Below are positions 1-20,541 of a DNA stretch of 20,541 bases, piece by piece. How positions within the stretch are numbered: the stretch's first letter is position 1; each line of letters begins with the position of its first letter. The DNA comes from a virus, in the IMG/VR virus record IMGVR_UViG_3300007276_000402, positions 1-20,541 of that record. One strand, written 5' to 3'. A model generated the notes under the pieces. That model had not been told where the DNA came from. It saw nothing but the letters and a program-made list of their open reading frames with translations, and made no database searches. Made by a program: the position numbers and the translations under genes.

Positions 1-27
1 AGGCGTCGTAGGCGTCGTAGGCGTCGT
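1..27. repeat. 9-bp tandem repeat (three copies) encoding Thr-Thr-Pro
   Basis: The 9-mer AGGCGTCGT occurs three times in a row from base 1. On the minus strand each copy reads ACG ACG CCT, giving Thr-Thr-Pro in frame with the truncated gene. The array may continue beyond the window edge, so its copy number is unknown. Confidence 0.85.
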
Positions 28-843
28 GGTCCCCGCTAACGGAGAACCAACCACGTTCCCCGTGGTATCCGTGGTGAAAGTGCTTGTCGTAGTAGGCGTG
101 GCTCCCGTAGTGCCAATCACCTGGTCCGAGGTCCGCGTGCCGCCAGGCGTTACAAACTGATCACCCGTAGTGGTCAAGATAGTACCCGTCGCGCTACCCG
201 GAGGCAGACCCGCCGCAGCCGCTTGCTCGGCAGACAAACCTACCGTCGTGCCACCCAGGCCACTGCCCATTATGTTAGCTCCGGTGGACGGAAACACCGC
301 TGTGATGTCCATCTCTCCAGAAGGCTGTAAATCCGCACGCCCCATAGTGATACCAGTCGTCGGCTCACCACTGGGCAAAACACCCTTGGATACCACCGGC
401 ACCGGGCGATTAAGAATTCTGTCGTAGAACGTAAGGGCAGCGGGCCCCGCGACGTTATACGCGGGCGTTTGCGTAATCGATTGTGGATCGTAAGGCAGAC
501 GAGACGCCAATTCCTCCGCACCAAACATGGCCGCACCCGGCTGGCGAGGCTCCGCAGGAGCAAGAGGTAAATCTTGAAAATTTGCACCTTCCGCAGAGCG
601 AATAGGAGACAAACTAACAATGCCGTCTCCACCCGTGGCGGTAGCCGTCCCGGTGCCTGAGCCCCCAATGGACAGTTGGCCACGGACCTGGTTGAACGCT
701 GATTGATAATTAGGGTCGTTTAACGCAACCCCATTGTCCCGCGCCCACTGATCCGCCCTAATCCTAGCCGTATTGATATCCGACTGGTTTTCGTATTCCG
801 CAAGCTCTAACTGTAGTGCCTGCGCTATTTCGTCTCTGGTCAT
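1..843 (-). CDS. Partial Gly/Thr/Pro-rich phage protein of unknown function, cut by window edge
   Basis: An open frame of 281 codons runs from ATG at 843 to the window edge without a stop. The first 60 residues look helical and charged (begins MTRDEIAQALQLELAEYENQ). The rest is low-complexity, rich in Gly, Thr, Pro, Ser and Ala, and ends at the edge in a TTP triplet repeat. Its ATG lies 12 bases after the TerL stop codon, so it is probably in the same late transcript. Genes next to TerL are often portal or virion proteins, but this composition does not resemble a portal, and I do not recognise a family. A minor virion or linker-rich protein is a guess from position only. The frame is reliable; the function is open. 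Confidence 0.75.
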   Translation of the reverse strand, partial: MTRDEIAQALQLELAEYENQSDINTARIRADQWARDNGVALNDPNYQSAFNQVRGQLSIGGSGTGTATATGGDGIVSLSPIRSAEGANFQDLPLAPAEPRQPGAAMFGAEELASRLPYDPQSITQTPAYNVAGPAALTFYDRILNRPVPVVSKGVLPSGEPTTGITMGRADLQPSGEMDITAVFPSTGANIMGSGLGGTTVGLSAEQAAAAGLPPGSATGTILTTTGDQFVTPGGTRTSDQVIGTTGATPTTTSTFTTDTTGNVVGSPLAGTTTPTTPTTP

Positions 844-855
844 CGACCGCTACCC

Positions 856-2325
856 TCACCCATAATACGCAGCCCGCACTCTGGCAGGCTCTTCGGAACC
901 CCAATCGTCGGTAGGCAACTGTACAAAGTTACCCTGACGATAACGCATTAACGCTTGAGTGGTACTGTCAACCAAATCATCATGCTCGCCGTTAGGGAAC
1001 GCAGCACACTCTTCTATCAACTCATGAGCCCATTGCTCATCCGGCACCCAAATCATGCCTGCTTCCAAAAGAGGCGCAATAGAGTGGACTCTCGTGACCT
1101 TATCATTGCCACGAGACGGCGTAAAGTTTACCACAGGGATTCCCATATTCCGAAGTTCGTGCGTTAACGGCATACCAGAAGCCTTCGCCTCAATAATTAC
1201 CGTCTCAGGGTCCCAATACTTGTACTGGTCAAACGCAATCGCCTTCAGTTCAGGAAAATCCCACCGCCCCTTCTGCAAATCTAACAAAATCAAATTGGGC
1301 TGCGTGCCCTCGTCCGGGTGAAACACACCCCATGTCGTAATCGCACTGTAGTCAGCCGTCTCTCGCTTAGAAAACGCCGTGTCATAGCTCTGAATAACGT
1401 ATTCAAGCTTAGGTATTGACGGTTTTTCCCAAAAATGCCACCACTCACGCTTCAGGATCGCATTCGTGTCGCCCGTGGGCTGCTGCTGGTACTGCGCGTT
1501 CCACTTATTTGGCGGAATAGACGCTTTTACCGCCTGCAAATCGTCCAAAGACCAATATTCCGGCCACACAGGGTCCCCAGAAGGCAGCTCCATAGGGAAT
1601 TCTACTATCTCCCACTGATCCGCTAACGGATCACGAGCCATCTGACGCACCAATTGACCCGTCAAGTCCTTCTCAGACCAACGAGTCATCACCAAAACTA
1701 TCGCTCCACCCGGCTGGAGCCTCTGACGGGGGCCCCCTGTGTACCAATCCCAGGCATCATCAAAGCCTGTATTCGACATAGCAGTCTGTTCAGAATGGGG
1801 ATCGTCGATAATACATAAATCAGCACCACGACCAGCGAGATTACTGCCAACACCGACAGCATAATACATACCGCCGCGAGCAGTATCCCACCTTCCACTA
1901 GCTTTCGAATCGGCGGCCAAACCCGATTCAGGAAAAATCTCTTCATAGTCTTCTCGCTCAATCAGATTTTTTACTTTTCTACCGAAACCTACCGCAAGTT
2001 CCGTGGTGTGCGTGGCCTGAATGATCTTCATCGCAGGGTTGCGCCCCACCATCCAAGCAGGAAACAGGAAACTAGCAAATTCACTCTTGGTATGACGCGG
2101 AGGCATGTTGACGATCAGACGCTTTAGCTTGCCGTTGGCCACGGCCTCCAGTTTTTCAGCAATCAGACGATGGTGCTTACCCGCAATGAACTCGGGCTAC
2201 ATCGCGCGGACAAAGGTCAAGAAGTCCTGCTGGCACGCCTCAACGCGCTCCAACTGCGCCAAACGCAACTGAAGCTTTAGCTGACGGTCCGCAACTTCAT
2301 CCGGGCTGTCTAAAGGATCAGTCAT
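856..2325 (-). CDS. terL: Large terminase subunit (TerL), with in-frame amber at codon 43
   Basis: DNA-packaging motor: an ATPase drives DNA into the procapsid and an RNase H-fold nuclease cuts the concatemer. The ATPase has a non-canonical Walker A (PPRHTKS, about residues 75-81) and Walker B (LCIIDDPH, about 171-178). The nuclease has Asp315 (SYDTAF), Glu379 (IIEAKASG) and the EHDDLVD acidic motif near 449. The open frame most easily called starts at a GTG at 2142, but homology-like sequence continues upstream in the same frame (FIAGKHHRLIAEKLE) to an ATG at 2325. This upstream part is needed for the N-terminal adenine-binding region. A single TAG at 2197-2199 interrupts it, in the pattern FVRAM-stop-PEFIAG, where relatives usually have Trp. 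The ATG at 2325 overlaps the previous stop by 8 bp, which supports it as the original start. Nonsense mutation, sequence error or suppression are all possible. Full length would be 489 aa, normal for TerL. Confidence 0.9.
2197..2199 (-). other. In-frame TAG codon inside TerL
   Basis: Minus-strand codons read GCG ATG TAG CCC GAG TTC. The frame is otherwise open from 2325 to 856. From memory, terminases of this type usually carry Trp here (M-W-P-E/D-F-I), one base from TAG (TGG to TAG). The base after the stop is C, a context often associated with leakier termination. Confidence 0.85.
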
Positions 2326-2638
2326 CCGCAATCAAAGCCTTTACTAGATCGGCGTCGCCAGAATTCATAAAGATCGGGGTCTGCGGGCCCATGAACGCGC
2401 CCAGGACATTAAAGTCAAAATACTCTATGGCGTCCTCACGAGTCATGTCCACCGCCCCATCCATCAGGATATCAATGCATTTCTGTATATCGTAGACCAG
2501 AACAGGCCCCTCGTCGTCACTTACCGTCGTTCCGTAAGCCGTTCCAATTATAGCGTCATCAAAACCATCTGCCTTCAAATACATGTCGTCTTCCACGGCG
2601 TTTATGCTCAATTGAATTTTTTTAAATTTACTAGTCAC
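2318..2638 (-). CDS. Conserved small phage protein upstream of TerL
   Basis: An acidic 106-aa protein. The central and C-terminal part (VYDIQKCIDILM, then MTREDAIEYFDFNVLGAFMG, then TPIFM) resembles a small conserved protein common in aquatic phage genomes, whose function is unknown to me. No transmembrane segment or catalytic motif is visible. The start taken is GTG at 2638, with an AGGGG about 9 bases upstream. An ATG at 2584 (MYLKADGFDD) would give a protein closer to the usual length of about 90 aa, so the first 18 residues are uncertain. Its TGA overlaps the TerL ATG by 8 bp, implying translational coupling with packaging. Confidence 0.8.
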   Translation of the reverse strand: MTSKFKKIQLSINAVEDDMYLKADGFDDAIIGTAYGTTVSDDEGPVLVYDIQKCIDILMDGAVDMTREDAIEYFDFNVLGAFMGPQTPIFMNSGDADLVKALIADD

Positions 2639-2878
2639 GTCTTGGGGCCCCTGTGCGGTCTTATATGCAATTTTATGCGATTCAACTTATATGGATTTTT
2701 GCAATTTTTTCGCGACTTTTCAAATTGTTTTTTCTCATCATTGTTCGTGAAAAACATGCCCAAGCACGCGACCCGAGTAAAAGGGGTCCCGGGCGCGTTT
2801 GTACGTGAAATCCGGCCAATTAATTGCGATCCGCCTCGATTGGACCAGGGGCCCCGGCACGCGGTCCTGGGACCAGGC

Positions 2879-2954
2879 GCCAGGGATCGCGGCCACCGGC
2901 CCAGGGACCAGGGCTCTTGCCAGGCGTGCCAGGGATCGCGGCCACCGGCCCAGG
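2879..2954. repeat. 27-bp perfect direct repeat, two copies, within CCAGG-rich DNA
   Basis: Bases 2879-2905 and 2928-2954 are identical over 27 bp (start GCCAGGGATCGCGGCC), 49 bp apart. A third, shorter match (CAGGCGCCAGGGATCGC) appears at 2874-2890 and 2951-2967. An inverted repeat GGCCGCCC-A-GGGCGGCC follows at 3023-3039. Confidence 0.85.
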
Positions 2955-3078
2955 CGCCAGGGATCGCCCAGGCGGGCCAGGGACCAGGGTGGCGGTACGC
3001 GGTACGTTTGCAGGTGTTCTAGGGCCGCCCAGGGCGGCCAGGATCGGCGGGAGTTTACCTGGGAGCGTTTGCCAGGCG

Positions 3079-3107
3079 AAAAAAAACCCGGCGCTGCGGC
3101 CGGGTTT
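3079..3107 (-). terminator. Rho-independent terminator of the 4311-3126 unit
   Basis: Nine-bp stem AAACCCGGC/GCCGGGTTT (3084-3092 with 3099-3107) and a 6-base loop. It is followed on the minus strand by eight T residues (plus-strand A run 3079-3086). It lies 18 bases past the TAG at 3126. Confidence 0.9.
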
Positions 3108-3125
3108 CTCGTGCCAGGGTGGCGA

Positions 3126-3389
3126 CTAGGGGGTGAGGTAGCCGGGCTCGTGCCGCATCGGGACCAGGTGGTCCAAGCGTGCCCAGTTGGGATGGTCCTC
3201 GGTGAACGAGCAGTAGAAAGCCAGGATCGCTTCCTCGCGGGTAATCCCGGTGTGCGCGTTCATGCCATCGCACCAGGACTGGTCCAGGTGCTTGTCTGCC
3301 CGCTGCGGGCGGTATCCAGTCGATCGATGCTCGATCGCGATTACCTGGGCGGGATCGAGCGGGTTCGGTAAGTAGTAAAGCATTTTCAT
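3126..3389 (-). CDS. Small hypothetical protein
   Basis: 87 aa from ATG at 3389, or 85 aa from the second ATG at 3383. The AGGAG at 3393-3397 sits 3 bases from the first ATG and 9 from the second, so MLYYLPNPLDPAQ is the more likely start. The sequence is Asp/His/Pro-rich with two Trp and two Cys. I recognise no family. Its SD overlaps the TAG of the preceding gp88-like gene, whose frame is the same; readthrough of that TAG would fuse the two proteins. It ends in TAG just before a strong terminator, so it is the last gene of its unit. Confidence 0.65.
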   Translation of the reverse strand: MKMLYYLPNPLDPAQVIAIEHRSTGYRPQRADKHLDQSWCDGMNAHTGITREEAILAFYCSFTEDHPNWARLDHLVPMRHEPGYLTP

Positions 3390-3395
3390 TTTCTC

Positions 3396-3998
3396 CTATT
3401 TAACTATTTCGATGATTGAGACCGGCCCGGTTGCCTGGTAGCAGTTGAGACAGTCCAGGCATTTACGGCCGGTGCAGTTGTCGCGCGGATCGGCGGCACG
3501 GGTGTTGTTGAAGACTTTGTGGAAGTGTCGGGGCGGATCGGATCGCACGCGATCGATGCGCGGATTCGAATAGATAAGAATCAGATTCGCCGGGATCGGC
3601 CCGCTGCTGGCAACCGATCGGACCAGATCGGCGCGTTTAGTCCAGAGCGTAAAGGTAGTTCCCGGCAGCGCAGCCGCGATCCGAACAAAGTTCCTCAAGT
3701 GGTCCCGGTTCTGCAGCTCACCATGCCCGTGGAAGCGAACGAAACGAAGGTTCACCAGGCGATCCGTCAGGGCGGCCAGTTCCAGGTCGGTGATCGGGCG
3801 TGCCAGTGCCCGGCTGTTTTGTTCCTAGGGATCGACACAGTTCTGGCGGTGAGTTTGCAACATTCGAACACTGTAACAATCGCCGCAGATAGTTTTACCG
3901 GCGGCGTGCTGCTGCTGACAGAATTCATTGCTAAGGGTGTTGGTGTTGATCGCTGCGAGCCCGTCTAGCTTGCCGGTCATCCGGCTGACTTTGATCAC
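3396..3998 (-). CDS. Cys-rich gp88-like phage protein, split by in-frame amber at codon 58
   Basis: Two open frames in the same register, separated only by a TAG at 3825-3827, together make a 200-aa protein. The N-terminal part has MTGKLDG, AINTNTLSNEFC and ICGDCYSVRML. The C-terminal part has RFHGHGEL, FTLWTKRADLV, ANLILIYSNP and a Cys cluster NCTGRKCLDCLNC. As I recall them, these blocks occur in this order in one family of phage proteins related to mycobacteriophage gp88. The Cys spacing suggests metal or Fe-S binding, but no activity is established. The start is GTG at 3998, overlapping the previous stop by 4 bp (GTGA). As written, the TAG would leave a 57-residue fragment. A nonsense mutation, an error, or readthrough are open. 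The stop at 3396 is also TAG. Confidence 0.7.
3825..3827 (-). other. In-frame TAG inside the gp88-like gene
   Basis: Minus-strand codons read GAT CCC TAG GAA CAA AAC. The remembered family pattern is N-C-V-P-x-(F/W/L)-x-x-N-S, placing the TAG at an aromatic or bulky position. On the plus strand the site is CTAGG, one transition from CCAGG, a word very common in this segment. Confidence 0.8.
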
Positions 3999-10942: not shown

Positions 10943-11301
10943 TTGTCTTCTCCTGTGTGTTTGTTAAACCAAAGGTCGAAACCTTTGTTATTTAATTGCA
11001 TCTGTTTGTATTCGTCCAAGTCGCCGCAGACTGACTTTTTAAGCACGGCCGGAGTCACATTTTTCACGCTAGAGCATGCCGCGCAACAAAAGCGGTGGTT
11101 TACGTTCTTTGCCAAAAAAGGTTTTCCGCAGTGATCGCAAGCTTTTGTTACTCGGTCTTCGTACCTTTTCTTTTTTCGCCACGCTTGACGGCAATCATGG
11201 GTGCATACTTTGTGATCAGGTTTTTTAGGAACAAAACTCACGCCGCAATGTAAACACTTAACCGGCTCGTGCTTCTTTTTAAGGCTCAGAAAAAACTTCA
11301 T
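10930..11301 (-). CDS. Zinc-finger protein with two Cys4 modules
   Basis: 123 aa. Two similar treble-clef-like zinc modules: C16-x2-C19 with C33-x3-C37 (KCLHCG ... VCTHDC), and C55-x2-C58 with C72/C73-x2-C76 (ACDHCG ... FCCAAC). Both are followed by basic helices, especially RQAWRKKKRYEDR. The C-terminus has a Trp/Lys-rich end. Such proteins often bind nucleic acid or act as small regulators, but no specific role can be read. It overlaps the upstream gene by 23 bp. SD is weak. Confidence 0.7.
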   Translation of the reverse strand: MKFFLSLKKKHEPVKCLHCGVSFVPKKPDHKVCTHDCRQAWRKKKRYEDRVTKACDHCGKPFLAKNVNHRFCCAACSSVKNVTPAVLKKSVCGDLDEYKQMQLNNKGFDLWFNKHTGEDKWKL

Positions 11302-11527
11302 CCGAATTTTCTTTCTTTTCTCGTTGAACTTGCTGGATCATTTGCTCAGAACATTTGACGTAATCGGAGGGATTGACGCCTATGTCAGAAGCCATGCGGG
11401 CCGCGAGCCGTTCGCAAGCAACCATCAGGTAATTTAAAGGAATATCGCAATGTTGTTGATAAAAAACGGACATGATGGAGTCTTCGACAGAATCCACTAT
11501 ATCAAACACCTTTTCTTGTTTAGACAT
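11279..11527 (-). CDS. Small hypothetical helical protein (82 aa)
   Basis: ATG 11527 with GAGG about 9 bases upstream and an 8-bp overlap with the previous gene. The central part (DSIMSVFYQQHCDIPLNYLMVACERLAARMASDIG) appears helical and resembles small conserved phage proteins of unknown role. The end is charged (QVQREKKENSDE). No catalytic motif seen. Confidence 0.65.
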   Translation of the reverse strand: MSKQEKVFDIVDSVEDSIMSVFYQQHCDIPLNYLMVACERLAARMASDIGVNPSDYVKCSEQMIQQVQREKKENSDEVFSEP

Positions 11528-11723
11528 TTTTTCGAGCCTCTAATCTTTTGGTTCGTTCAATGTTTATTTTTTCCACAAGCGCCAAACATTTTTCGCTGTG
11601 GCCCTGTAAGACCCAACGCGCTGTTTCATGGTCTTCTAAATTGCTTATGGCGCAGTCACAGTCCATTGACGCGGTAAAGGCCAGGTCAGAGATCAGCTCT
11701 AACTCTTCGTCTAATATTTTCAT
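11520..11723 (-). CDS. Small hypothetical protein (67 aa)
   Basis: ATG 11723 shares one base with the TAA of the previous gene (TAATG). The protein is acidic, mostly helical, with a CDC motif (SMDCDCAISNLE) and a basic end (RTKRLEARKNV). It has no recognised family. Stop-start coupling supports translation. Confidence 0.65.
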   Translation of the reverse strand: MKILDEELELISDLAFTASMDCDCAISNLEDHETARWVLQGHSEKCLALVEKINIERTKRLEARKNV

Positions 11724-11905
11724 TAGTTTGAACCCCTTCGCACGACATCAATGTAGTTAACTAACTTTTCTACGTGTGTTCTAAGGTTATTGTGATCATC
11801 AAGAATATTTTTAGCAAAATCTAAAACTTCTTGTAAATCACGATTAAGTTGTGCGTGATGCATGTGACTATATTCCAAGTCTTTTGGTTCCGTTTCTTTT
11901 TTCAT
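11723..11905 (-). CDS. Small hypothetical helical protein (60 aa), first gene of its chain
   Basis: Start at ATG 11905 with GGAGG 5 bases upstream; a longer in-frame start at 11962 would overlap the promoter and lacks an SD. The product begins MKKETEPKDLEYSHMHHAQL and is helical, probably a coiled coil (LDFAKNILDDHNNLRTHVEKLVNY). It leads the seven-gene minus-strand chain ending at the 10403-10431 terminator. Function unknown. Confidence 0.65.
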   Translation of the reverse strand: MKKETEPKDLEYSHMHHAQLNRDLQEVLDFAKNILDDHNNLRTHVEKLVNYIDVVRRGSN

Positions 11906-11932
11906 CAAGACCTCCGTTTTGGTTAGGGGGCC

Positions 11933-11962
11933 AGTATACACACATAAAATACCCATATTCAA
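11933..11962 (-). promoter_or_regulatory. Sigma70-type promoter for the 11905-10480 chain
   Basis: Minus strand: TTGAAT (11962-11957), 18 bases, TATACT (11938-11933). Four of six and five of six match consensus. It is 28 bases from the first ATG and divergent from the plus-strand HTH gene. Confidence 0.6.
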
Positions 11963-11963
11963 C

Positions 11964-11990
11964 TTGTTTTACCCAAAAAAATCGTATAAA
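11964..11990 (+). promoter_or_regulatory. Candidate promoter for the HTH gene
   Basis: TTGTTT (11964-11969), 15 bases, TATAAA (11985-11990), 27 bases before ATG 12018. Spacing is short; shifting the -35 by one base gives 16. Back-to-back with the opposite promoter, so one regulator could act on both. Confidence 0.4.
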
Positions 11991-12017
11991 TTTACATTTT
12001 TTCGGGAGACTCAACAT

Positions 12018-12197
12018 ATGGCGGGTAGACCAGCTAAATGGCCACAAGAACTTGTGGATAAGGTTAGACAAGCGAGAAACGTAGAGAACCGCAAAGTTGA
12101 TTGGATTGCGGAAAAATATGGTGTACCCATAGATACGGTGCGAGACTGGGTATATCGAGGAAAGCGAGCTACGCCATATGAAGAAGCCCGACAGTGA
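12018..12197 (+). CDS. Small helix-turn-helix DNA-binding protein
   Basis: 59 aa from ATG 12018 (GGGAG 9 bases upstream); an earlier in-frame start at 11919 would cross the promoter. Begins MAGRPAKWPQELVDKVRQAR. The HTH spans about residues 24-50: VDWIAEKYGVPIDTVRDWVYRG, a pattern of helix, turn (YGVP) and recognition helix as in small phage regulators. Being divergent from the chain at 11905, it is a candidate regulator of both promoters, which is inference. It overlaps the following zinc-ribbon gene by 20 bp. Confidence 0.7.
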   Translation: MAGRPAKWPQELVDKVRQARNVENRKVDWIAEKYGVPIDTVRDWVYRGKRATPYEEARQ

Positions 12198-12357
12198 GTA
12201 CCAGTGTTCTAGATGTAAGGAAATGTTTTCCTTAGAGCCAATTATCTACCAGTTCTTGGTTGAATCCGAGGCGCAAGTAGAGTCTATCCTGTGTTATGCG
12301 TGCCTGGGACAGGTAGAAATGGTTAATGGCGATCTTGAGTTTCCAATTTATCATTGA
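12178..12357 (+). CDS. Small zinc-ribbon protein (59 aa)
   Basis: ATG 12178 lies inside the end of the HTH gene; TGA at 12355-12357. Cys pairs at C10/C13 (QCSRCK) and C39/C42 (LCYACL) would form one zinc ribbon. The 25 residues between are helical and hydrophobic. Probably co-expressed with the HTH protein. It ends tail-to-tail with a minus-strand gene, overlapping it by 35 bp. Function unknown. Confidence 0.6.
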   Translation: MKKPDSEYQCSRCKEMFSLEPIIYQFLVESEAQVESILCYACLGQVEMVNGDLEFPIYH

Positions 12358-12478
12358 GCCGGTAGGCAAGGTCTACCAGCTCTTTTAGTTCCGCTACGCT
12401 CTCATTAAATTTATCGATAGCTTCAAAGACTTTGTCCGCCTCTTCTTCGGTAAACTCAACTGTTACTTTTGTTCCCAA
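12323..12478 (-). CDS. Small coiled-coil protein with probable TTG start (51 aa)
   Basis: A frame from TTG 12478 to TAA 12323 encodes GTKVTVEFTEEEADKVFEAI followed by a heptad-like helix (FNESVAELKELVDLAYRLN). GAGG stands 9 bases upstream, and an in-frame stop further up excludes ATG starts. It overlaps the previous gene by 23 bp and the convergent zinc-ribbon gene by 35 bp. Composition is protein-like and the acidic coiled coil is convincing, but the non-ATG start keeps confidence moderate. Confidence 0.5.
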   Translation of the reverse strand: MGTKVTVEFTEEEADKVFEAIDKFNESVAELKELVDLAYRLNDKLETQDRH

Positions 12479-12641
12479 CTGGAATCGCCTCGTTTGGTCG
12501 GTTGGCCTCGTGCTTCACGCCTAGTAGTGCTTGCCACATTTGAAGCGTCTTGACGTCGTCGGTGTTAGCCGCGCCATTTTCCTGGATTTGTCGCTCTACT
12601 TTCTCAAATGCTCTTTTAAATTTTTGTTCAATCGTGAGCAT
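12456..12641 (-). CDS. Small hypothetical protein (61 aa)
   Basis: ATG 12641, with AAGGA about 10 bases upstream. The N-terminal half is a charged helix (LTIEQKFKRAFEKVERQIQE). The middle has DDVKTLQMWQALLGVKHEAN, and the tail is polar. No family recognised. It overlaps the preceding ribbon-helix-helix gene by 14 bp and the next by 23 bp. Confidence 0.6.
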   Translation of the reverse strand: MLTIEQKFKRAFEKVERQIQENGAANTDDVKTLQMWQALLGVKHEANRPNEAIPVGNKSNS

Positions 12642-12888
12642 TATAATAATCCTTGACCGAAAAGACGGTGTCTTCTTCTTTTGGATCGGGTTTATTCTTC
12701 TCTCGGTGTTCGATTAAACGATCCTTAATGTAGCGTCGGTCTCTATCCGAAAGGTTTTCGTTTTTCCACGCTTCAAATACCACGCGCAGTTGGCCGCTGA
12801 TAGTGCGGCCCTCCACGTCGGCAATGACTACGATCTCTTCGTAGACGTCTTTTGGAAGTAAGACGCTTTTCCACTTGTTTGTATCCAT
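12628..12888 (-). CDS. Arc/MetJ-like ribbon-helix-helix protein
   Basis: 86 aa from ATG 12888 with GGAG 6 bases upstream (a TTG four codons earlier is less likely). Residues 5-43 fit the ribbon-helix-helix layout: a short strand (KWKSVLLP), helix A (KDVYEEIVVIADVEG), then helix B (TISGQLRVVFEAW). Such proteins dimerise and insert the strand into DNA, usually as repressors. The C-terminal half is highly charged (DRDRRYIKDRLIEHREKNK). It lies directly downstream of the polymerase gene, so it may autoregulate the replication operon; this is inference. Confidence 0.6.
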   Translation of the reverse strand: MDTNKWKSVLLPKDVYEEIVVIADVEGRTISGQLRVVFEAWKNENLSDRDRRYIKDRLIEHREKNKPDPKEEDTVFSVKDYYNAHD

Positions 12889-12925
12889 CGGTTTCTCCAA
12901 GGCTAATATCTGCGATTATATAAGA

Positions 12926-14839
12926 TTAATCGACAGATTCAAAATCTCCCCAGTTTGGGCCCATTTCAATATCGCACTTGTTCGGGACCACTAGAGGTAT
13001 GGCGTTTTTCATGGTTTCAGACAGCTCACGAGCCTGTTCCACGGACTTTACGCTGAAAGCCAACTCATCATGCACCTGGAGCAAAGGCACCGTACCGGCC
13101 TTGTAGACGTCCACCATAGCCTGTTTGGTCATATCTGCGGCCGCCGCCTGGATTAAACGGTTCAATGATTTATAGGTGTACGCCCTGCGAAGACGGGTCG
13201 TGGGCCCATATTCGTTTATTGCGTCCTGGTAAGGCAAAGCTTTATTCATTTCAAAGGCGTCCGGTTCCCATAAATCAAACCGGCACTTACGTCCTCCCAG
13301 GGAGCGTATGGAGCCGCTAGAGCGTTTATCGTCCAGGGAGCGCTGTACCCCTTGCATCAACCCTCGAACGAACGGCACGCGGTCGTGGTACTGTTTGGTA
13401 AGCTCCTTGGCCTCCGGCAGGGTGATGTCTAGCTGCTGCGACAGTTTATTGACGCCCATCCCATACATCATCGCCAAATTTATGACTTTCGCCTGTTTGC
13501 GGGGGATTTCCGCCATGTCGGCAACCATGCTGTGAAAATCCATATTCGGGTTTTCGTTGTAGGCTTCGACAAACTCTTTGACGCCCGGCAGGTCCATGTT
13601 CTTGTACTCCGAGAATGCGTGCGCGTAGTGCGTCAGTATGCGTGGCTCCTGTTGACTGAAGTCTATTGCAGCCCACTGCTCGCCTTCTTCCGGTAAAAAT
13701 AATCTACGGATCATAGGTCCTAGCTCCGGGTCGCGAGCCGGGATTTGTTGAAGGTTTGGGTTGCTCATGGATAGACGGCCGGAAACGGTGCCCCCGCTGT
13801 CTGAGCGCAGTTGGTTGATATGCCCATGCACACGGCCATCCCTGCCGACAAACTTCAATATGGAATCTATGAACGTTCCCTGTATTTTGTTCAGGTTACG
13901 CGCTTCCATGATTAACTTAGCCAGTTCTGAGGGGTGTTCAGACAAAAACGCTTTAGTGAAGCTAGGCGCGCCTTTTTCTGTCCTTGCGTATTTTATGTTC
14001 TGCTTGTCAAACGCCTTAGCGATAGAAGCAGCCGCCCAGATTTCCACATCAGAGCCGTTGAGTTCCTTGAGCCGTTTACGGGCGGCCTTCTCACGTTTTA
14101 AAAGTTCTTGTTTGGTGCGTTCCGCCTGGTCGGTATCGACTCGGATGCCCCTGTATGTCATGTCCACGAGGCACGGCAGCAGGTCCGTTTCCAATTCCCA
14201 GATTTGCCATAGGTCCTCTCGGTTCAATAGGGTCTTGAGATGTGACCAAAGCTCTAAGGTAATTTCGGCGTCAACCTCCGCGTAAGGCCCCACATACATC
14301 GCGGGCAGCTTCCACATCTCACCCTTGGGGTCCACGCCAAACTCGCGTGCTGCTTCTGTCAGGGTCTTCTCAGACTTGGTCTTGCCCAGGTAGTCGTAAC
14401 ACAGGGCGTTCAGGCTGTAGGAGAATCGGTTCTCGTCTACAAGCGCAGCGGTCATCATCGTGTCGATCACACGGCCCTTGACCTCAAAACCCATCGCACG
14501 TATCCAGCCCAGGTCATATTGAGCGTTGTGCATGATCTTGTCTGCCGGAGACTCAAACACCTTTTTTAAATATTTATTGATGATGCGCTGGTCCATGTTG
14601 CCGCCACCCAGGTGACCTACAGGGAAGTAACCCTTCCACCCCGGAACAGCTATGGCATAGCCCACCACCTCGCCGTTCTTTGTAGCCCACCCCGGGCCGT
14701 TCGACTTGATGTGTGGGTCGCGTGTCTCAACGTCAATTGCTATTTCTTTGGCGTTTAAAATTTCTTCTGGAAAAGGATGCTCTGGGGGCAGCCAATCTGT
14801 CTTCTGAGCGAACATCGCCATCTGTAAGTTACCGGGCAT
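12926..14839 (-). CDS. polA: Family A DNA polymerase with 3'-5' exonuclease
   Basis: 637-aa replicative phage polymerase without a 5'-3' exonuclease domain. Proofreading motifs are intact: Exo I DVET (Asp36, Glu38), Exo II HNAQYDLGW (Asp109) and Exo III YAEVD (Tyr186, Asp190). Polymerase motif A is DFSQQEPR (393-400), motif B is RKQAKVINLAMMYG (447-460), and motif C is VHDE (589-592). Aligning motif B with E. coli Pol I puts Leu455 at the Phe762 site. Phage polymerases carry Phe, Tyr or Leu there, and surveys of marine viral polymerases link Leu to slower or temperate lifestyles. ATG 14839 has GGAG 11 bases upstream and overlaps the zinc-ribbon gene by 11 bp. It is part of the operon starting at 19434. 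Confidence 0.95.
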   Translation of the reverse strand: MPGNLQMAMFAQKTDWLPPEHPFPEEILNAKEIAIDVETRDPHIKSNGPGWATKNGEVVGYAIAVPGWKGYFPVGHLGGGNMDQRIINKYLKKVFESPADKIMHNAQYDLGWIRAMGFEVKGRVIDTMMTAALVDENRFSYSLNALCYDYLGKTKSEKTLTEAAREFGVDPKGEMWKLPAMYVGPYAEVDAEITLELWSHLKTLLNREDLWQIWELETDLLPCLVDMTYRGIRVDTDQAERTKQELLKREKAARKRLKELNGSDVEIWAAASIAKAFDKQNIKYARTEKGAPSFTKAFLSEHPSELAKLIMEARNLNKIQGTFIDSILKFVGRDGRVHGHINQLRSDSGGTVSGRLSMSNPNLQQIPARDPELGPMIRRLFLPEEGEQWAAIDFSQQEPRILTHYAHAFSEYKNMDLPGVKEFVEAYNENPNMDFHSMVADMAEIPRKQAKVINLAMMYGMGVNKLSQQLDITLPEAKELTKQYHDRVPFVRGLMQGVQRSLDDKRSSGSIRSLGGRKCRFDLWEPDAFEMNKALPYQDAINEYGPTTRLRRAYTYKSLNRLIQAAAADMTKQAMVDVYKAGTVPLLQVHDELAFSVKSVEQARELSETMKNAIPLVVPNKCDIEMGPNWGDFESVD

Positions 14840-15011
14840 TTTCTTTTGCTCTCCAAATAGTTTCTCGGCCTATGGCTTTACTAAAGTGTGTGCAGTGTTG
14901 GCAGTACCAACCTTTCCTCACGTTGTTTTCCACATCAACAACGGCTGTGGCGGTGTTACCGCAGGCATCGCATTTGTTGTAGTACAAAGGGTCAAGTTCG
15001 TCTTTTTTCAT
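14829..15011 (-). CDS. Small zinc-ribbon protein (60 aa) in the replication operon
   Basis: Cys pairs C14/C17 (KCDACG) and C37/C40 (YCQHCT) form a zinc ribbon, followed by a basic helix (KAIGRETIWRAKENAR). The start ATG overlaps the helicase stop (ATGA) and its end overlaps the polymerase start by 11 bp. Position between helicase and polymerase suggests a role in replication or its regulation, but nothing more specific can be read. Confidence 0.7.
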   Translation of the reverse strand: MKKDELDPLYYNKCDACGNTATAVVDVENNVRKGWYCQHCTHFSKAIGRETIWRAKENAR

Positions 15012-16513
15012 AAGTTGTAAGCTCTTTCATAATTCTCAGGATCGACGATAAATAAATTTTCTATTGTTCTAGTGACACCAACATAAAACACGCGGTGCAA
15101 ATCGTCGGCAGGGGTTCGTAAGGCAGCGGGGCTCAGATCAAGTAACAGAACGACGTTCTCTGCCTCTCCCCCCTTTGTGCCGTGGATCGTGGACAATTTG
15201 ATACGGGGTAATGCATTAAACTTTTCTCCTCGTCTCAATAAAGATGTGATGTAGGCGCGGTCTACCGCAGGAATTTTGTCCATTGCGACATGCCATATCA
15301 TGCTGTCATCAGCGATTAGACCGTGTTCTTTCTGCAATAGTTCAAGAGTGAATAACTGATCGTCAGGAGCCACTATCTTTTTCTTGCCACGTGCGACGCG
15401 CACGCCGTTGCCGGACATATAGCTATATATTGTTTCGGCGGTCTTGAGGGACACCGGGCGTCCTTTACGCATGGACTCCCATCCGTTTACAGCCACGGAC
15501 AAACGCTCAGAGATGGACCGTGAGCCGTTACGCTCAAACAAGTAACCGCCACTCTTGAGCTGCTCTGCAAGGGGCGACAGCATGTAGTTTGCCTGTGCCA
15601 TTACCAGCCATTCGCCGTCCGACATATCCAACTCTTCTAGACTGGTCAGTCTTCTAACGCTGCCTTCTTGAGGCTTAGGGTTATATTTTTTTGGGAAACG
15701 TCTATGGATTCTCGAAACAATACTTTCTGCAAGTCGATGGACGGCTTGCGGGATTCGATAGGATTGTTCCAATACCTCACTTCCGCCGGGCAGGTTGATG
15801 AACTGATCAACATCTGCACCTGCCCATCTATAGATAGCTTGATCGTCGTCTCCCGCGCAGTACATGCGTTCTGCTTTTTTGTCGATGGCATGAGCGATAT
15901 CCCACTGTAAGGGTGAAAGGTCCTGGGCTTCATCCAAAAAACAAAGCTTGAAGTAAGGGCACACTCTCTCCGCATCCTTTGTAAACAGCTCAAGCATGTC
16001 GGTGTAGTCCAATAAACCATGAAACTGCTTGTACTCTGCGTAGGCCGCAGCAATGTATTCAACCTCGGGCCACGATTCGTCTAATGCGGTTTGGTTGTAC
16101 TCTGAACGCAACGTAGTCTTTTTAAGGCGGGACAGGTTAATAAGTCCTAACACCGGGTGTTCTAAAAGATTAGATGAAGACTCTTGTTCAAAATCGTAGT
16201 GCGGTCTAATGCTGAGAGGTATCTTTATCTTTTTAGAAAGATCATCGAAGTTTTCTTTCTTCATTAGATCGTGATCGCGTATACCAAGCGCGCGGTAAGC
16301 AAAGCTATGCAACGTTCTAAAATGCGGCAGGTCAGCCTTTTCATTAAGTTGAAAACGACGGGCGGCGCGTTCCCTCGCCTCGCCCGCCGCTTTCCGGGTG
16401 AACGCAAAAAATGCAATGTCTTGTGACGACATACCTGCTTCTAATGCCTGGTCGACATAGTTAAGAAGCGTAGTTGTCTTTCCAGTCCCGGGAGGACCAA
16501 ATATACGAAACAT
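15008..16513 (-). CDS. UvrD/Rep-like superfamily 1A DNA helicase
   Basis: 501 aa from ATG 16513, which shares one base with the primase stop (TAATG); a longer in-frame extension to 16594 lies within the primase gene and is rejected. All SF1A motifs are visible: Walker A GPPGTGKTT (6-14), motif Ia FAFTRKAA (36-43), Walker B FLDEAQD (192-198), motif III GDDDQAIYRW (221-230), motif IV QSYRIP (250-255), motif V STIHGTKGGE (441-450) and motif VI VFYVGVTR (475-482). At about 500 aa it is shorter than E. coli UvrD (about 720 aa), as is common for phage versions. With no DnaB-type helicase in the window, it may be the replicative helicase. Confidence 0.9.
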   Translation of the reverse strand: MFRIFGPPGTGKTTTLLNYVDQALEAGMSSQDIAFFAFTRKAAGEARERAARRFQLNEKADLPHFRTLHSFAYRALGIRDHDLMKKENFDDLSKKIKIPLSIRPHYDFEQESSSNLLEHPVLGLINLSRLKKTTLRSEYNQTALDESWPEVEYIAAAYAEYKQFHGLLDYTDMLELFTKDAERVCPYFKLCFLDEAQDLSPLQWDIAHAIDKKAERMYCAGDDDQAIYRWAGADVDQFINLPGGSEVLEQSYRIPQAVHRLAESIVSRIHRRFPKKYNPKPQEGSVRRLTSLEELDMSDGEWLVMAQANYMLSPLAEQLKSGGYLFERNGSRSISERLSVAVNGWESMRKGRPVSLKTAETIYSYMSGNGVRVARGKKKIVAPDDQLFTLELLQKEHGLIADDSMIWHVAMDKIPAVDRAYITSLLRRGEKFNALPRIKLSTIHGTKGGEAENVVLLLDLSPAALRTPADDLHRVFYVGVTRTIENLFIVDPENYERAYNL

Positions 16514-18057
16514 TAAAACGGCTGCGGATGAGCAGAAGAAATTCCGTTGGGCTTTATAGCGCCAATGGGAGCAGCATATGCGGGTATGCTCCACACCCTC
16601 ACTGCTTTTCCGCTAATCTTTAAAGAAGTTGATTCGCCGTTTATGTCTCGTAAACGCTGGGCAATCTTATGGCTTTTGTATTCAAAGAAACGATGCTTGT
16701 GCAGATACGCGGTAAAATCTTTAATGCGAAAGTAAGTTCGCTCATCGTCTTCATTGGTGTATGGGCGGCGCAGCAGAATCTCTTCCCTGTTGTCTGCTTG
16801 CTGCATGACTGTGCAAAACTCTTCTAATAAATCATAGAACTGACCGTTGATAGAGGCGTCCTGCGACACTTCAATGATGGCACCGTCTGTATCGCTCATC
16901 TCTGACAGCAACCCGTTTATACGGGCCTCCCACATGTCCTTCTTTACACTCTGCGGCATAAAATTGAGCTGTTCCACACAGGCGCGCTGAAACGCAGCCT
17001 GGTTCATTAGAGCGTCTGTATCCAGCTCTAACGGAAAGCCGTTAACATCCATAAACCACACAGGGGGAGTAGAGTTGTACTTGCGAAGGTTCGCAATGGT
17101 CGCACCCGATACTGCGGCCTCAATACCGTACTTCCTCGTCTTACAGACCTCGGCATTGCAGTAATCACAGATCGGGGCGTCTTTGCACTTGTAAGCGTAA
17201 TCTTTCTTCTGAAGCTGTTTCGCTACAAGATTAACTTCGGAGAGAGGAAGTGGAGGTTCGAAGTAGCGCGTATTATACGTTAAAATCTCAGATTCCCAAC
17301 TATCTGGGAAAGCTTTGCGTAAGTACACACCAACGTTGAAGAGCCTATTATTCCGTCCACCTTCGCTTATTTTCTGCGTGCAAAGCGTTTGTAAACAGGG
17401 CGGACCATCTTTGACAATGATGTTAGTGTCCGCTTCTTCTATGGTTATGCTGTCAAGCTGCTCCGGTTCTTGAGCGTATTGATCGTACAACCCAAAGAAT
17501 TCTTCGATTGTACCGGACTGCCCATCATCTTTAATGACATAGCGCAACCCTTCCTCCGCATCATAATACGGAAGGTTTAAGAAATTACCTACGTCACCCC
17601 GGTCCAGGAACAACTTGACTTGTTTAGGAAATATTTCACTACCGCCGTAGCCTAAGCTTGCAGCAATAGTTTGTAAGGTCTCCTGCATCTTCTTTGCAGT
17701 AACCCATTCCTTTGTAAACAAAAAACAGTGAGCGCCTCCTGACTTGGAACGGCACACGACAAGCGGCAGCTTCATGCTACGCACTTTGTCTACTAGCTCT
17801 TTGTGATCTAACGGATACTGATCAACGTCGATACAACCCCACTTACACTGGTTGTCTTCGTTGATCGGTATAATTCCAATTGCTTCACCCTCTCCGCTTA
17901 AATGACCGAGCCAGGTGTCCTTTGTTCGTGGCGTTTTAACAACGGTTGCCTTACCGGTATTCTTTCCATTTTGCGCTTTGCGATCTATCCGATATGTGCC
18001 GTAAGCTTGCTTTAGTCCGTCAAAGATAGCCGCAAATTTCTTAGCGTTATCAATCAT
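16513..18057 (-). CDS. Archaeo-eukaryotic-type primase (AEP), TOTE/PrimPol-like
   Basis: 514 aa. The N-terminal third matches an AEP core: GIIPINEDNQ, then the catalytic CIDVD (Asp77, Asp79) and SGGAHCFLF (His110). GNFLNLPYY at about 192-200 may contribute the third motif. This layout resembles the primase domain of TOTE-type conflict elements and phage PrimPol proteins. A Cys cluster (CKDAPICDYCNAEVC) near residue 300 probably binds zinc. The C-terminal part is helical and may be a PriCT-like or DNA-binding region. It makes primers on single-stranded DNA, possibly with polymerase activity. ATG 18057 lies 12 bases after a terminator T tract, with GGTGA just upstream. Its TAA overlaps the helicase ATG. 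Confidence 0.8.
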   Translation of the reverse strand: MIDNAKKFAAIFDGLKQAYGTYRIDRKAQNGKNTGKATVVKTPRTKDTWLGHLSGEGEAIGIIPINEDNQCKWGCIDVDQYPLDHKELVDKVRSMKLPLVVCRSKSGGAHCFLFTKEWVTAKKMQETLQTIAASLGYGGSEIFPKQVKLFLDRGDVGNFLNLPYYDAEEGLRYVIKDDGQSGTIEEFFGLYDQYAQEPEQLDSITIEEADTNIIVKDGPPCLQTLCTQKISEGGRNNRLFNVGVYLRKAFPDSWESEILTYNTRYFEPPLPLSEVNLVAKQLQKKDYAYKCKDAPICDYCNAEVCKTRKYGIEAAVSGATIANLRKYNSTPPVWFMDVNGFPLELDTDALMNQAAFQRACVEQLNFMPQSVKKDMWEARINGLLSEMSDTDGAIIEVSQDASINGQFYDLLEEFCTVMQQADNREEILLRRPYTNEDDERTYFRIKDFTAYLHKHRFFEYKSHKIAQRLRDINGESTSLKISGKAVRVWSIPAYAAPIGAIKPNGISSAHPQPF

Positions 18058-18068
18058 GTTTCACCCGA

Positions 18069-18093
18069 AAAACGGGGCCTTTCGGCCCCGTAT
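18069..18093 (-). terminator. Hairpin between SSB-like and primase genes; partial terminator
   Basis: Stem ACGGGGCC/GGCCCCGT (18074-18081 with 18086-18093), loop TTTC, then five T on the minus strand (plus-strand A run 18070-18074). Only 12 bases separate it from the primase ATG and no other promoter fits, so it likely reduces rather than stops downstream transcription. Confidence 0.8.
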
Positions 18094-18096
18094 TAA

Positions 18097-18855
18097 TTAC
18101 CACGGAACGTCGTCAGAGTTACTGCCGTCGTCACCCTCCTGCTCGTGCTTAACAACTACGTCGCCAGCGCGGATGCTCTTGGCAAACTCGCGTGCGTGTT
18201 GATACGCATCGACCTGATTTGTTTCAGCCAACGACTCCTCAAGCTCAACACTCCAACCCCACCAATCGCCTTTGTTGTTGTTCTCGTGCTGTGTCGTAAG
18301 CTTATATGTGTACGCAAAACGTGGCGGCTTGAATATGCCGTTCGCACCTTGCATCGTGCGACTGCTAACCACCGTGTTCCACGCTCTGGACTTCTTGAGC
18401 TGTGTAGATTTCATCGGTATCAAGGCAGCTTCCAGCGTCCCATCCTCTTGTTTTATAAGAACAAAATGCTGATGTGTCTCTTCGATGTAATTACCACCAC
18501 CGCCTACAATCACGTCTTTGTTGGTGGACGGATCACGCTCTGTTTCAGGGCGCTTATCATCCTTCTGATAAATGTTAACGGGAGCCCCAGGACCTGATCC
18601 ACGCGGAGCCCATTCGATAAACACACGCTGATATGCACAAGGAATAACAGTGACACCGTCTTCCGGTTTCCACTGCTGCCCTGTTACTTCCTGCAATATC
18701 GTGCCGTTATCCTTATCAATTTTAAGGAATGGAATCTTGACGTCATCTTGATCAAGAGTCTCACCCATAGTCTCAGCATCGGCCTCAAATAGCGAGACTG
18801 CCGCCAACTCCGTACTAGCCTTTTCGGCCACTTCTTTTTTCTTTGCTTCTGCCAT
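18097..18855 (-). CDS. Phage single-stranded DNA-binding-like protein
   Basis: 252 aa. The core (IPFLKIDKDNG, VTVIPCAYQRVFIEWAPRG, AWNTVVSSRTM, FKPPRFAYTYKLTT) resembles phage proteins in replication operons thought to bind single-stranded DNA. The tail is acidic and ends DDVPW, similar to the DD-x-PF tip of bacterial SSB that recruits partner proteins. The N-terminus is Lys/Glu/Ala-rich. Position directly before primase and helicase fits. ATG 18855 with AAAGG about 10 bases upstream. SSB role is inferred from tail and context; the fold is not certain. Confidence 0.65.
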   Translation of the reverse strand: MAEAKKKEVAEKASTELAAVSLFEADAETMGETLDQDDVKIPFLKIDKDNGTILQEVTGQQWKPEDGVTVIPCAYQRVFIEWAPRGSGPGAPVNIYQKDDKRPETERDPSTNKDVIVGGGGNYIEETHQHFVLIKQEDGTLEAALIPMKSTQLKKSRAWNTVVSSRTMQGANGIFKPPRFAYTYKLTTQHENNNKGDWWGWSVELEESLAETNQVDAYQHAREFAKSIRAGDVVVKHEQEGDDGSNSDDVPW

Positions 18856-18861
18856 TTTTCG

Positions 18862-19434
18862 TTAACCTTTTTTAATGTTTGCGCGTTGACCCACATAAGC
18901 TCCGAACAAGTCCATCGGAAACTGCTTGCCCGATTCAACCTGGTCTTTTACAAATGCTTTCAGGGTCTGTGGATGAATGTCCCGCTTCTGTGCGGCAGGG
19001 TAGCCCTGACCAGCAAGAGAGGACATGAGGTCATTAGCCATTTGGTCTTCGCCGCGACCAAATTGACAACTAATAACGTTCTTGATGATATCGTCATACC
19101 CATTTTCTTGCAGCCAACTATAAGCAGAATCTCGGTTTTCAACCTTGATATAAGCGCCATAAGTTGGTTTTAGCTCGACTTTGGAACCGTCTTCTAGTTC
19201 CATTTTGGATACGCCGACTTCGTGTAGCAAAGCGGGAAGGTCTTCGTCGGTCAGCTTCAGCAAATCTTTCTTGCTCTGTTTGAGCTTACTGTCTAAGAGT
19301 TCTATTTCGTCTTGCTTGTTTCGGACAGCTCTTGCAACTTCAGCAATGCTGGCCACGCCACCGGTATCGAGGGATTCTACGGCAGACCCACCGGACTGAT
19401 CTGCTTCCATTTCTGCAAAGAGGTCATCGACCAT
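18862..19434 (-). CDS. Conserved phage replication-module protein of unknown function
   Basis: 190 aa from ATG 19434, with AAAGGAG about 9 bases upstream; a longer frame to 19545 crosses the promoter. N-terminal coiled coil (VRNKQDEIELLDSKLKQSKKD), then LTDEDLPALLHEVGVSKMELEDG, DSAYSWLQENGYDDIIKNVIS and a conserved end (HPQTLKAFVKDQVE, FPMDLFGAYVGQ). I recognise this arrangement as a protein that commonly sits next to the SSB-like gene in aquatic phages. Its role is not known; a structural or nuclease-inhibitor role would be speculation. It is the first gene of the replication operon. Confidence 0.7.
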   Translation of the reverse strand: MVDDLFAEMEADQSGGSAVESLDTGGVASIAEVARAVRNKQDEIELLDSKLKQSKKDLLKLTDEDLPALLHEVGVSKMELEDGSKVELKPTYGAYIKVENRDSAYSWLQENGYDDIIKNVISCQFGRGEDQMANDLMSSLAGQGYPAAQKRDIHPQTLKAFVKDQVESGKQFPMDLFGAYVGQRANIKKG

Positions 19435-19473
19435 CGTTTTTCTCCTTTCGTGATTAAAGGACATGTTTTGCCC

Positions 19474-19503
19474 TTGCGGAGGAGGATAATAGTCCCATAT
19501 AAT
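19474..19503 (+). promoter_or_regulatory. Candidate promoter of the SNF2-type helicase
   Basis: Perfect TATAAT at 19498-19503 with TTGCGG at 19474-19479 (18-base spacing, weak -35). It interleaves with the opposite promoter, so the two directions probably compete for polymerase. Confidence 0.5.
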
Positions 19504-19515
19504 CTCAGAAGTCAA
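19486..19515 (-). promoter_or_regulatory. Sigma70-type promoter of the replication operon
   Basis: Minus strand: TTGACT (19515-19510), 18 bases, TATTAT (19491-19486), with five of six matches in each box. It is 51 bases upstream of ATG 19434. Confidence 0.7.
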
Positions 19516-19531
19516 GTGTAAATAGAAAGCC

Positions 19532-20541
19532 ATGTATAAATTCAAAACAACACCTTACGAACACCAAAAAACTGTCTTTGACCAGTCTTGGACGTCTAGC
19601 ATGTATGCGCTGTTCATGGAAATGGGCACGGGTAAATCCAAGGTAGCGATAGATACCATGGGCGCTCTGTTCAAGCGCAAAGACATAGATACGGCCCTTA
19701 TCCTGGCACCCAAAGGCGTCTACGATAACTGGGTCAGGAAAGAAATACCGGCACATCTGCCCGACGACATACCCACTCGGATAGTGCGTTGGCAGCCCAA
19801 CTTTACAAAGAAATTTACCCAAGAAATCAAAGACATAGCTTTGAGAGAGAACCGTGAGCCGGGGACGTTGCACATCCTGATTATGAACATAGAAGCGTTG
19901 TCCACGAAGAAAGGGGCGGCCTCTGCGATTAAATTTTTGCAGCTAAACCCAGACAACATATCTATCGTTGATGAAAGCACCACGATCAAAAACCGCAAGG
20001 CGCAGCGGACTAAAACGGTGCTTGAGATTGGCCGGGCATCAAAATATCGCCGCATCCTGACCGGTAGCCCCATCACCAAGACACCTATGGATTTGTTTAG
20101 CCAGTGTGCCTACCTGGGCGACGACGCCTTGGGCTACACCAACTACTATGCTTTTCAAAATCGCTACGCCGTGACGCAGCAGCGGAGCATGGGGCATCGC
20201 AGCTTTCAGAAGATTGTGGGCTTTAGACGTCTTGAGGAGCTTACCGACAAGCTAGACCAGTTCAGCGCCCGGGTGTTGAAGCGTGACTGCTTGGACTTGC
20301 CGGACAAGGTATATATGGCGCGCAACGTGCCGTTGACCACGGAGCAGGTGAAGGTATACGGGCAGATGAAAGAACTAGCCCTGGCCCAGATGGAGGGTGG
20401 CGAGTTGGCCACCACCGCGTCGGTGCTTACACAGATCATGCGCCTGCAATCCATTGTTTGTGGGCACTTACGAACGGACGACGGTGAGATACAAAGCATC
20501 AAGAACAACCGCCTGCCTGAATTGATGAACGTCGTGGAAGA
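19532..20541 (+). CDS. SNF2/DEAD-type helicase, 3' end outside window
   Basis: 336 complete codons from ATG 19532 to the window edge, no stop. Superfamily 2 motifs: a Q-motif-like YEHQ (9-12), Walker A MGTGKS (31-36), APKGVYDNW (motif Ia region, 59-67), Walker B variant IVDEST (145-150) and motif III RILTGSP (174-180), followed by SNF2-like KTPMDLFSQC. The second RecA-like domain lies mainly beyond the edge. Phages often carry such short SNF2-type ATPases in replication modules, probably for remodelling or displacing protein on DNA, though the role is not proven. It is divergent from the replication operon. The SD is weak (AGAAAG). Confidence 0.85.
   Translation, partial: MYKFKTTPYEHQKTVFDQSWTSSMYALFMEMGTGKSKVAIDTMGALFKRKDIDTALILAPKGVYDNWVRKEIPAHLPDDIPTRIVRWQPNFTKKFTQEIKDIALRENREPGTLHILIMNIEALSTKKGAASAIKFLQLNPDNISIVDESTTIKNRKAQRTKTVLEIGRASKYRRILTGSPITKTPMDLFSQCAYLGDDALGYTNYYAFQNRYAVTQQRSMGHRSFQKIVGFRRLEELTDKLDQFSARVLKRDCLDLPDKVYMARNVPLTTEQVKVYGQMKELALAQMEGGELATTASVLTQIMRLQSIVCGHLRTDDGEIQSIKNNRLPELMNVVE

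What the first reader, a model, noticed from the sequence alone, without database searches (positions are those of the whole stretch)
2197..2199. Amber codon at a normally Trp position in the large terminase
TerL is essential, yet its frame is closed by TAG at codon 43 while all downstream ATPase and nuclease motifs are intact. The upstream ATG overlaps the preceding stop by 8 bp, so the long form is the ancestral gene. The codon is one base from TGG (Trp), which relatives usually have. The next possible start (GTG 2142) would lose the N-terminal adenine-binding region and has an SD only 2 bases away. Either the phage is defective, the base is wrong, or TAG is read through.
Basis: partly seen in the sequence, partly recalled or inferred. 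Interest (0 to 1): 0.7.

Follow-up and report, generated by a model that had tools for sequence, protein, structure and literature searches.

The report
Private amber mutation in phage terminase
One copy of a marine-type phage genome carries a single-base stop codon in its DNA-packaging gene that every close relative lacks, so it is an ordinary recent mutation or a base-calling error rather than a new way of reading the genetic code.

Summary
In detail: the terL frame (856-2325, minus strand) is closed by TAG at 2197-2199 (codon 43), where all 78 relatives covering the site have TGG. The decisive evidence is a separate IMG/VR contig (L002, 3300025570_001174). It matches window 1-3111 with one mismatch, and that mismatch is base 2198: L002 has the intact Trp codon. 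The amber is therefore private to this record and very recent.

In about 360,000 aligned codons of relatives I found no TAG in a conserved frame and one clear internal stop (TAA), so two ambers in one contig is a mild oddity. Suppression by a Trp-inserting tRNA is not strictly excluded, but little supports it: TAG ends at least five genes here, and no tRNA gene was found in the window or the near-identical contigs.

Best reading: recent C:G>T:A point changes, real or consensus errors, in one assembled variant. Only reads can tell those two apart. Low interest.

The parts
2197..2199 (-). TAG, codon 43 of terL, in place of an otherwise invariant Trp codon; the changed base is 2198
   Evidence: 78 of 78 covering relatives have TGG; the only mismatch to L002 in 3111 bases
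2200..2325 (-). terL codons 1-42 (ATG at 2325), overlapping the preceding gene by 8 bases
   Evidence: conserved in frame in all relatives long enough to show it
856..2196 (-). terL remainder (ATPase and nuclease regions), frame intact
   Evidence: PHROG 38 E 2.8e-101, Terminase_6C E 2.3e-13
2140..2142 (-). GTG, first in-frame restart candidate after the amber; GGAGG with only 2 bases of spacing; not a conserved start
3825..3827 (-). second TAG, in the GP88-family gene (codon 52 counted from ATG 3980), at a near-invariant Trp; the changed base is 3826
   Evidence: 59 of 60 relatives TGG, one TTT
3396..3980 (-). GP88-family gene interrupted by the second amber; its own terminal stop is also TAG
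   Evidence: (PF17338, E 8.1e-10); start inferred from relatives, which have stops upstream of it

Best explanation
The TAG is a single-base change (C to T on the + strand, TGG to TAG in the gene) private to this assembled contig. It is either a very recent nonsense mutation in one phage variant or a wrong consensus base. It has no evolved function. If real, the variant would make a 42-residue fragment and at best little of a TerL lacking its first 61 residues, so it should be packaging-defective unless complemented by an intact phage in the same cell. Shown here: the change is private, recent, and sits at an invariant Trp. Inferred: the loss of function. Not decidable here: mutation versus base-calling error.
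For: L002 matches window 1-3111 with one mismatch, at 2198, and has TGG. All 78 relatives covering the codon have TGG. At nucleotide level every aligned relative of at least 74% identity has C at 2198. No TAG was found in a conserved frame in about 360,000 aligned codons of relatives. The four other window-private changes that could be polarised as recent or at a conserved site (3826, 17346, 17815, 17832) are also C:G>T:A, the commonest mutation and damage class. Of the four private changes seen against near-identical contigs, one is nonsense, two missense and one silent, as expected of changes not yet filtered by selection.
Against: Two nonsense changes in one 20.5 kb contig is more than the baseline in relatives: one clear internal stop per about 360,000 codons, so 0.017 expected here. 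Both are TGG to TAG. One of the two was the reason the contig was picked, which weakens the surprise (about 0.017 for the second). If about 5-10 C:G>T:A changes occurred, two or more nonsense changes have a chance of 3-11%.
Confidence: 0.93

Rival explanations
1. TAG is translated as Trp (or another residue) by an amber-suppressor tRNA of this phage or its host, so TerL and GP88 are made full length.
For: Both ambers replace a Trp codon that relatives conserve. Downstream frames are intact, and neighbouring genes carry mainly silent private changes, so the lineage is not decaying.
Against: TGG is retained in the near-identical L002, so no stable recoding lineage is seen. TAG ends at least five genes here, including GP88 itself. 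About 110 other Trp codons in the window are TGG. No tRNA gene was found in the window or in the near-identical contigs L002 and L219. Known recoded phages have TAG in dozens of genes plus tRNA-SUP-CTA genes (41 genes in phAss-1, PMC10607447).
Confidence: 0.04
2. TerL truly starts after the amber (GTG 2142) and the upstream stretch is not translated.
For: A GTG with an upstream GGAGG exists.
Against: The 42 codons before the amber and the 19 from the amber to GTG are conserved in frame in the relatives. The GTG is not conserved and its spacing of 2 bases is poor. The match to solved T7-type terminase begins at residue 31, before the amber.
Confidence: 0.02
3. The contig comes from a decaying (defective) provirus in which several genes are broken.
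For: Two genes carry nonsense codons.
Against: Every other gene examined has an intact frame. Private changes in the middle of the window are mainly silent. The closest cultured relatives are phages of about 57-62 kb annotated with hosts such as Pelagibacter. L002 and L219 show near-identical copies without these stops.
Confidence: 0.03

Closest known systems
Amber (nonsense) point mutation, TGG to TAG
   Same: Single C:G>T:A transition at a Trp codon in an otherwise intact essential gene; intact copies in close relatives
   Different: Nothing beyond a second example in the same contig
TAG-recoded phages (genetic code 15 and related; phAss-1 and Zeta crAss-like phages, PMC10607447, PMC12386605, PMC9523058)
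   Same: In-frame TAG inside terL at a position where relatives have a sense codon
   Different: Two interrupted genes, not dozens; TAG still ends genes; no suppressor tRNA found; close relatives not recoded; residue is Trp, whereas code 15 is Gln
TerL of HTVC027P/HTVC023P-like and DSL-LC04-like phages
   Same: TerL 56-64% identical over most of the protein; Trp at the same column in HTVC027P and DSL-LC04
   Different: Those terL genes are uninterrupted

Membership tests
TAG-recoded phage (suppressor-based alternative code) | In-frame TAG codons in many genes of the genome | tested here: not met
   Two interrupted genes of about 29 examined
TAG-recoded phage (suppressor-based alternative code) | TAG avoided as a terminal codon | tested here: not met
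   At least five genes, GP88 included, end with TAG
TAG-recoded phage (suppressor-based alternative code) | tRNA with CUA anticodon in phage (or suppressor in host) | tested here: inconclusive
   No tRNA in the window or in the near-identical records L002 and L219; of 26 further or related records only G016 has tRNAs, Thr and an odd one, neither CTA. Much of a genome of about 57-62 kb was not seen; host unknown
TAG-recoded phage (suppressor-based alternative code) | Recoded positions shared with close relatives | tested here: not met
   0 of 78 at terL and 0 of 60 at GP88
TAG-recoded phage (suppressor-based alternative code) | In-frame TAG positions point to one amino acid | tested here: inconclusive
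   Both point to Trp, but n = 2, and TGG>TAG is a common nonsense route
Phage large terminase, PHROG 38 | Profile match over ATPase and nuclease regions | tested here: met
   E 2.8e-101; Terminase_6C E 2.3e-13
Phage large terminase, PHROG 38 | Continuous open frame from the conserved N-terminus | tested here: not met
   TAG at codon 43 in this record only

The most novel reading that the evidence does not exclude
This phage variant multiplies in a host, or carries on an unseen part of its genome, a Trp-inserting amber suppressor tRNA. Ambers at Trp codons of terL and the GP88 gene have just begun to be tolerated, which would be a first step of stop-codon reassignment.
Probability: 0.04. Interest if true: 0.6.

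Novelty: not a real feature. Interest (0 to 1): 0.1.

Why it matters
If TAG were read as Trp here, it would be an early stage of stop-codon reassignment caught in a small tRNA-poor phage. As it stands, the value is practical: a nonsense codon in one metagenomic phage contig should be checked against a near-identical contig before recoding is inferred. Here that check settled most of the question.

Tried and rejected
Stable recoding in the clade: rejected, since no TAG was found in a conserved frame in about 360,000 aligned codons of relatives. The GP88 'stops' flagged in relatives in that call lie upstream of the true start and are not interruptions. Late start of TerL: rejected. Suppressor tRNA in window or relatives: none; my own ARAGORN run over the fetched loci also gave none. 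Genome-wide C-to-T hypermutation: not supported, since private changes in the middle of the window are of mixed type and mainly silent. A six-frame screen for TAG-split genes in L002 and L219 found none, but it is weak: its first version missed the known terL amber and the second still missed the GP88 one. Near-identical phage records in GenBank: none.

Full report
Observation. The window is an IMG/VR virus record of 20541 bases. On the minus strand the terL frame runs from ATG 2325 to TGA 856 and holds one TAG, codon 43, at 2197-2199. The ATG overlaps the preceding gene by 8 bases. The rest of the frame matches PHROG 38 and Terminase_6C well.

Homologues at the column. Of 79 relatives aligned at this site, 78 cover it and all 78 have TGG; the other contig begins downstream. 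The 42 codons before the amber and the 19 from it to GTG 2142 are conserved in frame, while GTG 2142 is not a conserved start. The cultured phages HTVC027P and DSL-LC04 also have Trp, and the Trp aligns with a Trp of T7-type terminase in solved structures. The long form is the real gene and TGG is ancestral.

The decisive comparison. L002 (IMGVR_UViG_3300025570_001174) aligns to window 1-3111 at 99.97%: one mismatch in 3111 bases, at position 2198, where L002 has C and therefore TGG. L003 and L004 (97% and 95% identical over most of this stretch) agree with L002. The amber therefore arose, or was miscalled, after the split from L002, which is negligible in evolutionary time.

A second amber. 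The GP88-family gene, which reads on the minus strand from about 3980 to 3396, has TAG at 3825-3827. Of 60 relatives, 59 have TGG there and one has TTT. The start is inferred: upstream of it the relatives have stops. Of viral contigs, only L082 has the exact flanks around this codon, and it carries TGG. No near-identical contig covers this stretch, so its age is less well fixed; it is the only window-private change found in GP88 against relatives that agree with each other.

Is this more than chance? In about 360,000 aligned codons of relatives one clear internal stop was seen, a TAA in the L196 primase; other flagged stops lie in leader stretches or variable ends. By that yardstick a contig of about 6,000 codons should hold 0.017, and two has a chance near 1.4e-4; given that the contig was selected for the first amber, the second has a chance near 0.017. 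By another yardstick, 5.7% of possible C:G>T:A changes in these genes are nonsense, so two or more among 5-10 such changes has a chance of 3-11%. The pair is a mild oddity, not proof of a mechanism.

Nature of the private changes. L219 (3300006810_000471) matches window 11116-20541 with four mismatches, none nonsense. One of these is private to L219. The other three (17346, 17815, 17832) are private to the window. With 2198 and 3826, all five polarised recent or conserved-site window changes are C:G>T:A, the commonest class in spontaneous mutation, and also the class expected from cytosine damage. Elsewhere in the window, private changes against more distant relatives are of mixed type and mainly silent, so the lineage is under purifying selection and is not decaying or hypermutated.

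Suppression. TAG is the terminal codon of at least five genes, including GP88. No tRNA lies in the window or in the near-identical records L002 and L219, and of the other 24 relatives searched one has tRNAs, neither of them amber-reading. The HTVC027P and DSL-LC04 stretches searched (50 kb each) have none either. Recoded phages described in the literature have TAG in dozens of genes plus CUA tRNA genes: phAss-1 has 41 such genes and three suppressor tRNAs (PMC10607447), and Zeta crAss-like phages are similar (PMC12386605). The window does not fit that pattern. A host suppressor cannot be tested here.

Verdict. The stop is in the record, but it is best read as a private, recent nonsense mutation or a consensus error in one assembled variant. 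Reads would decide which. Nothing supports evolved readthrough beyond the coincidence of a second TGG to TAG change.

Noticed in passing
window 3825-3827 (-): Second in-frame TAG, in the GP88-family gene, at a Trp codon conserved in 59 of 60 relatives; not mentioned in the finding.
   Followed up: yes
window 2873-2989: GC-rich intergenic array of imperfect repeats (unit about CCAGGGATCGCGGCCACCGGC) between the genes at 2318-2638 and 3126-3389; near-identical contig L002 ends at window 3111, just beyond it.
   Followed up: no
window 1-27: Three copies of the 9-base repeat AGGCGTCGT (Thr/Pro-rich end of the protein at 1-843, minus) at the very edge; L002 continues past it, so the contig probably broke at the repeat.
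   Followed up: partly
window 17346, 17815, 17832: Three window-private C:G>T:A changes within 490 bases of the primase gene, against L219, L218 and five further relatives.
   Followed up: partly
L196, primase frame (column 141 of the window protein): Internal TAA at a Glu position in one relative, the only other clear nonsense seen in the survey.
   Followed up: no
L278/L279 (record G016, 37971-38124): A relative carries tRNA-Thr and a neighbouring tRNA-like gene with a predicted four-base anticodon (tccg).
   Followed up: no
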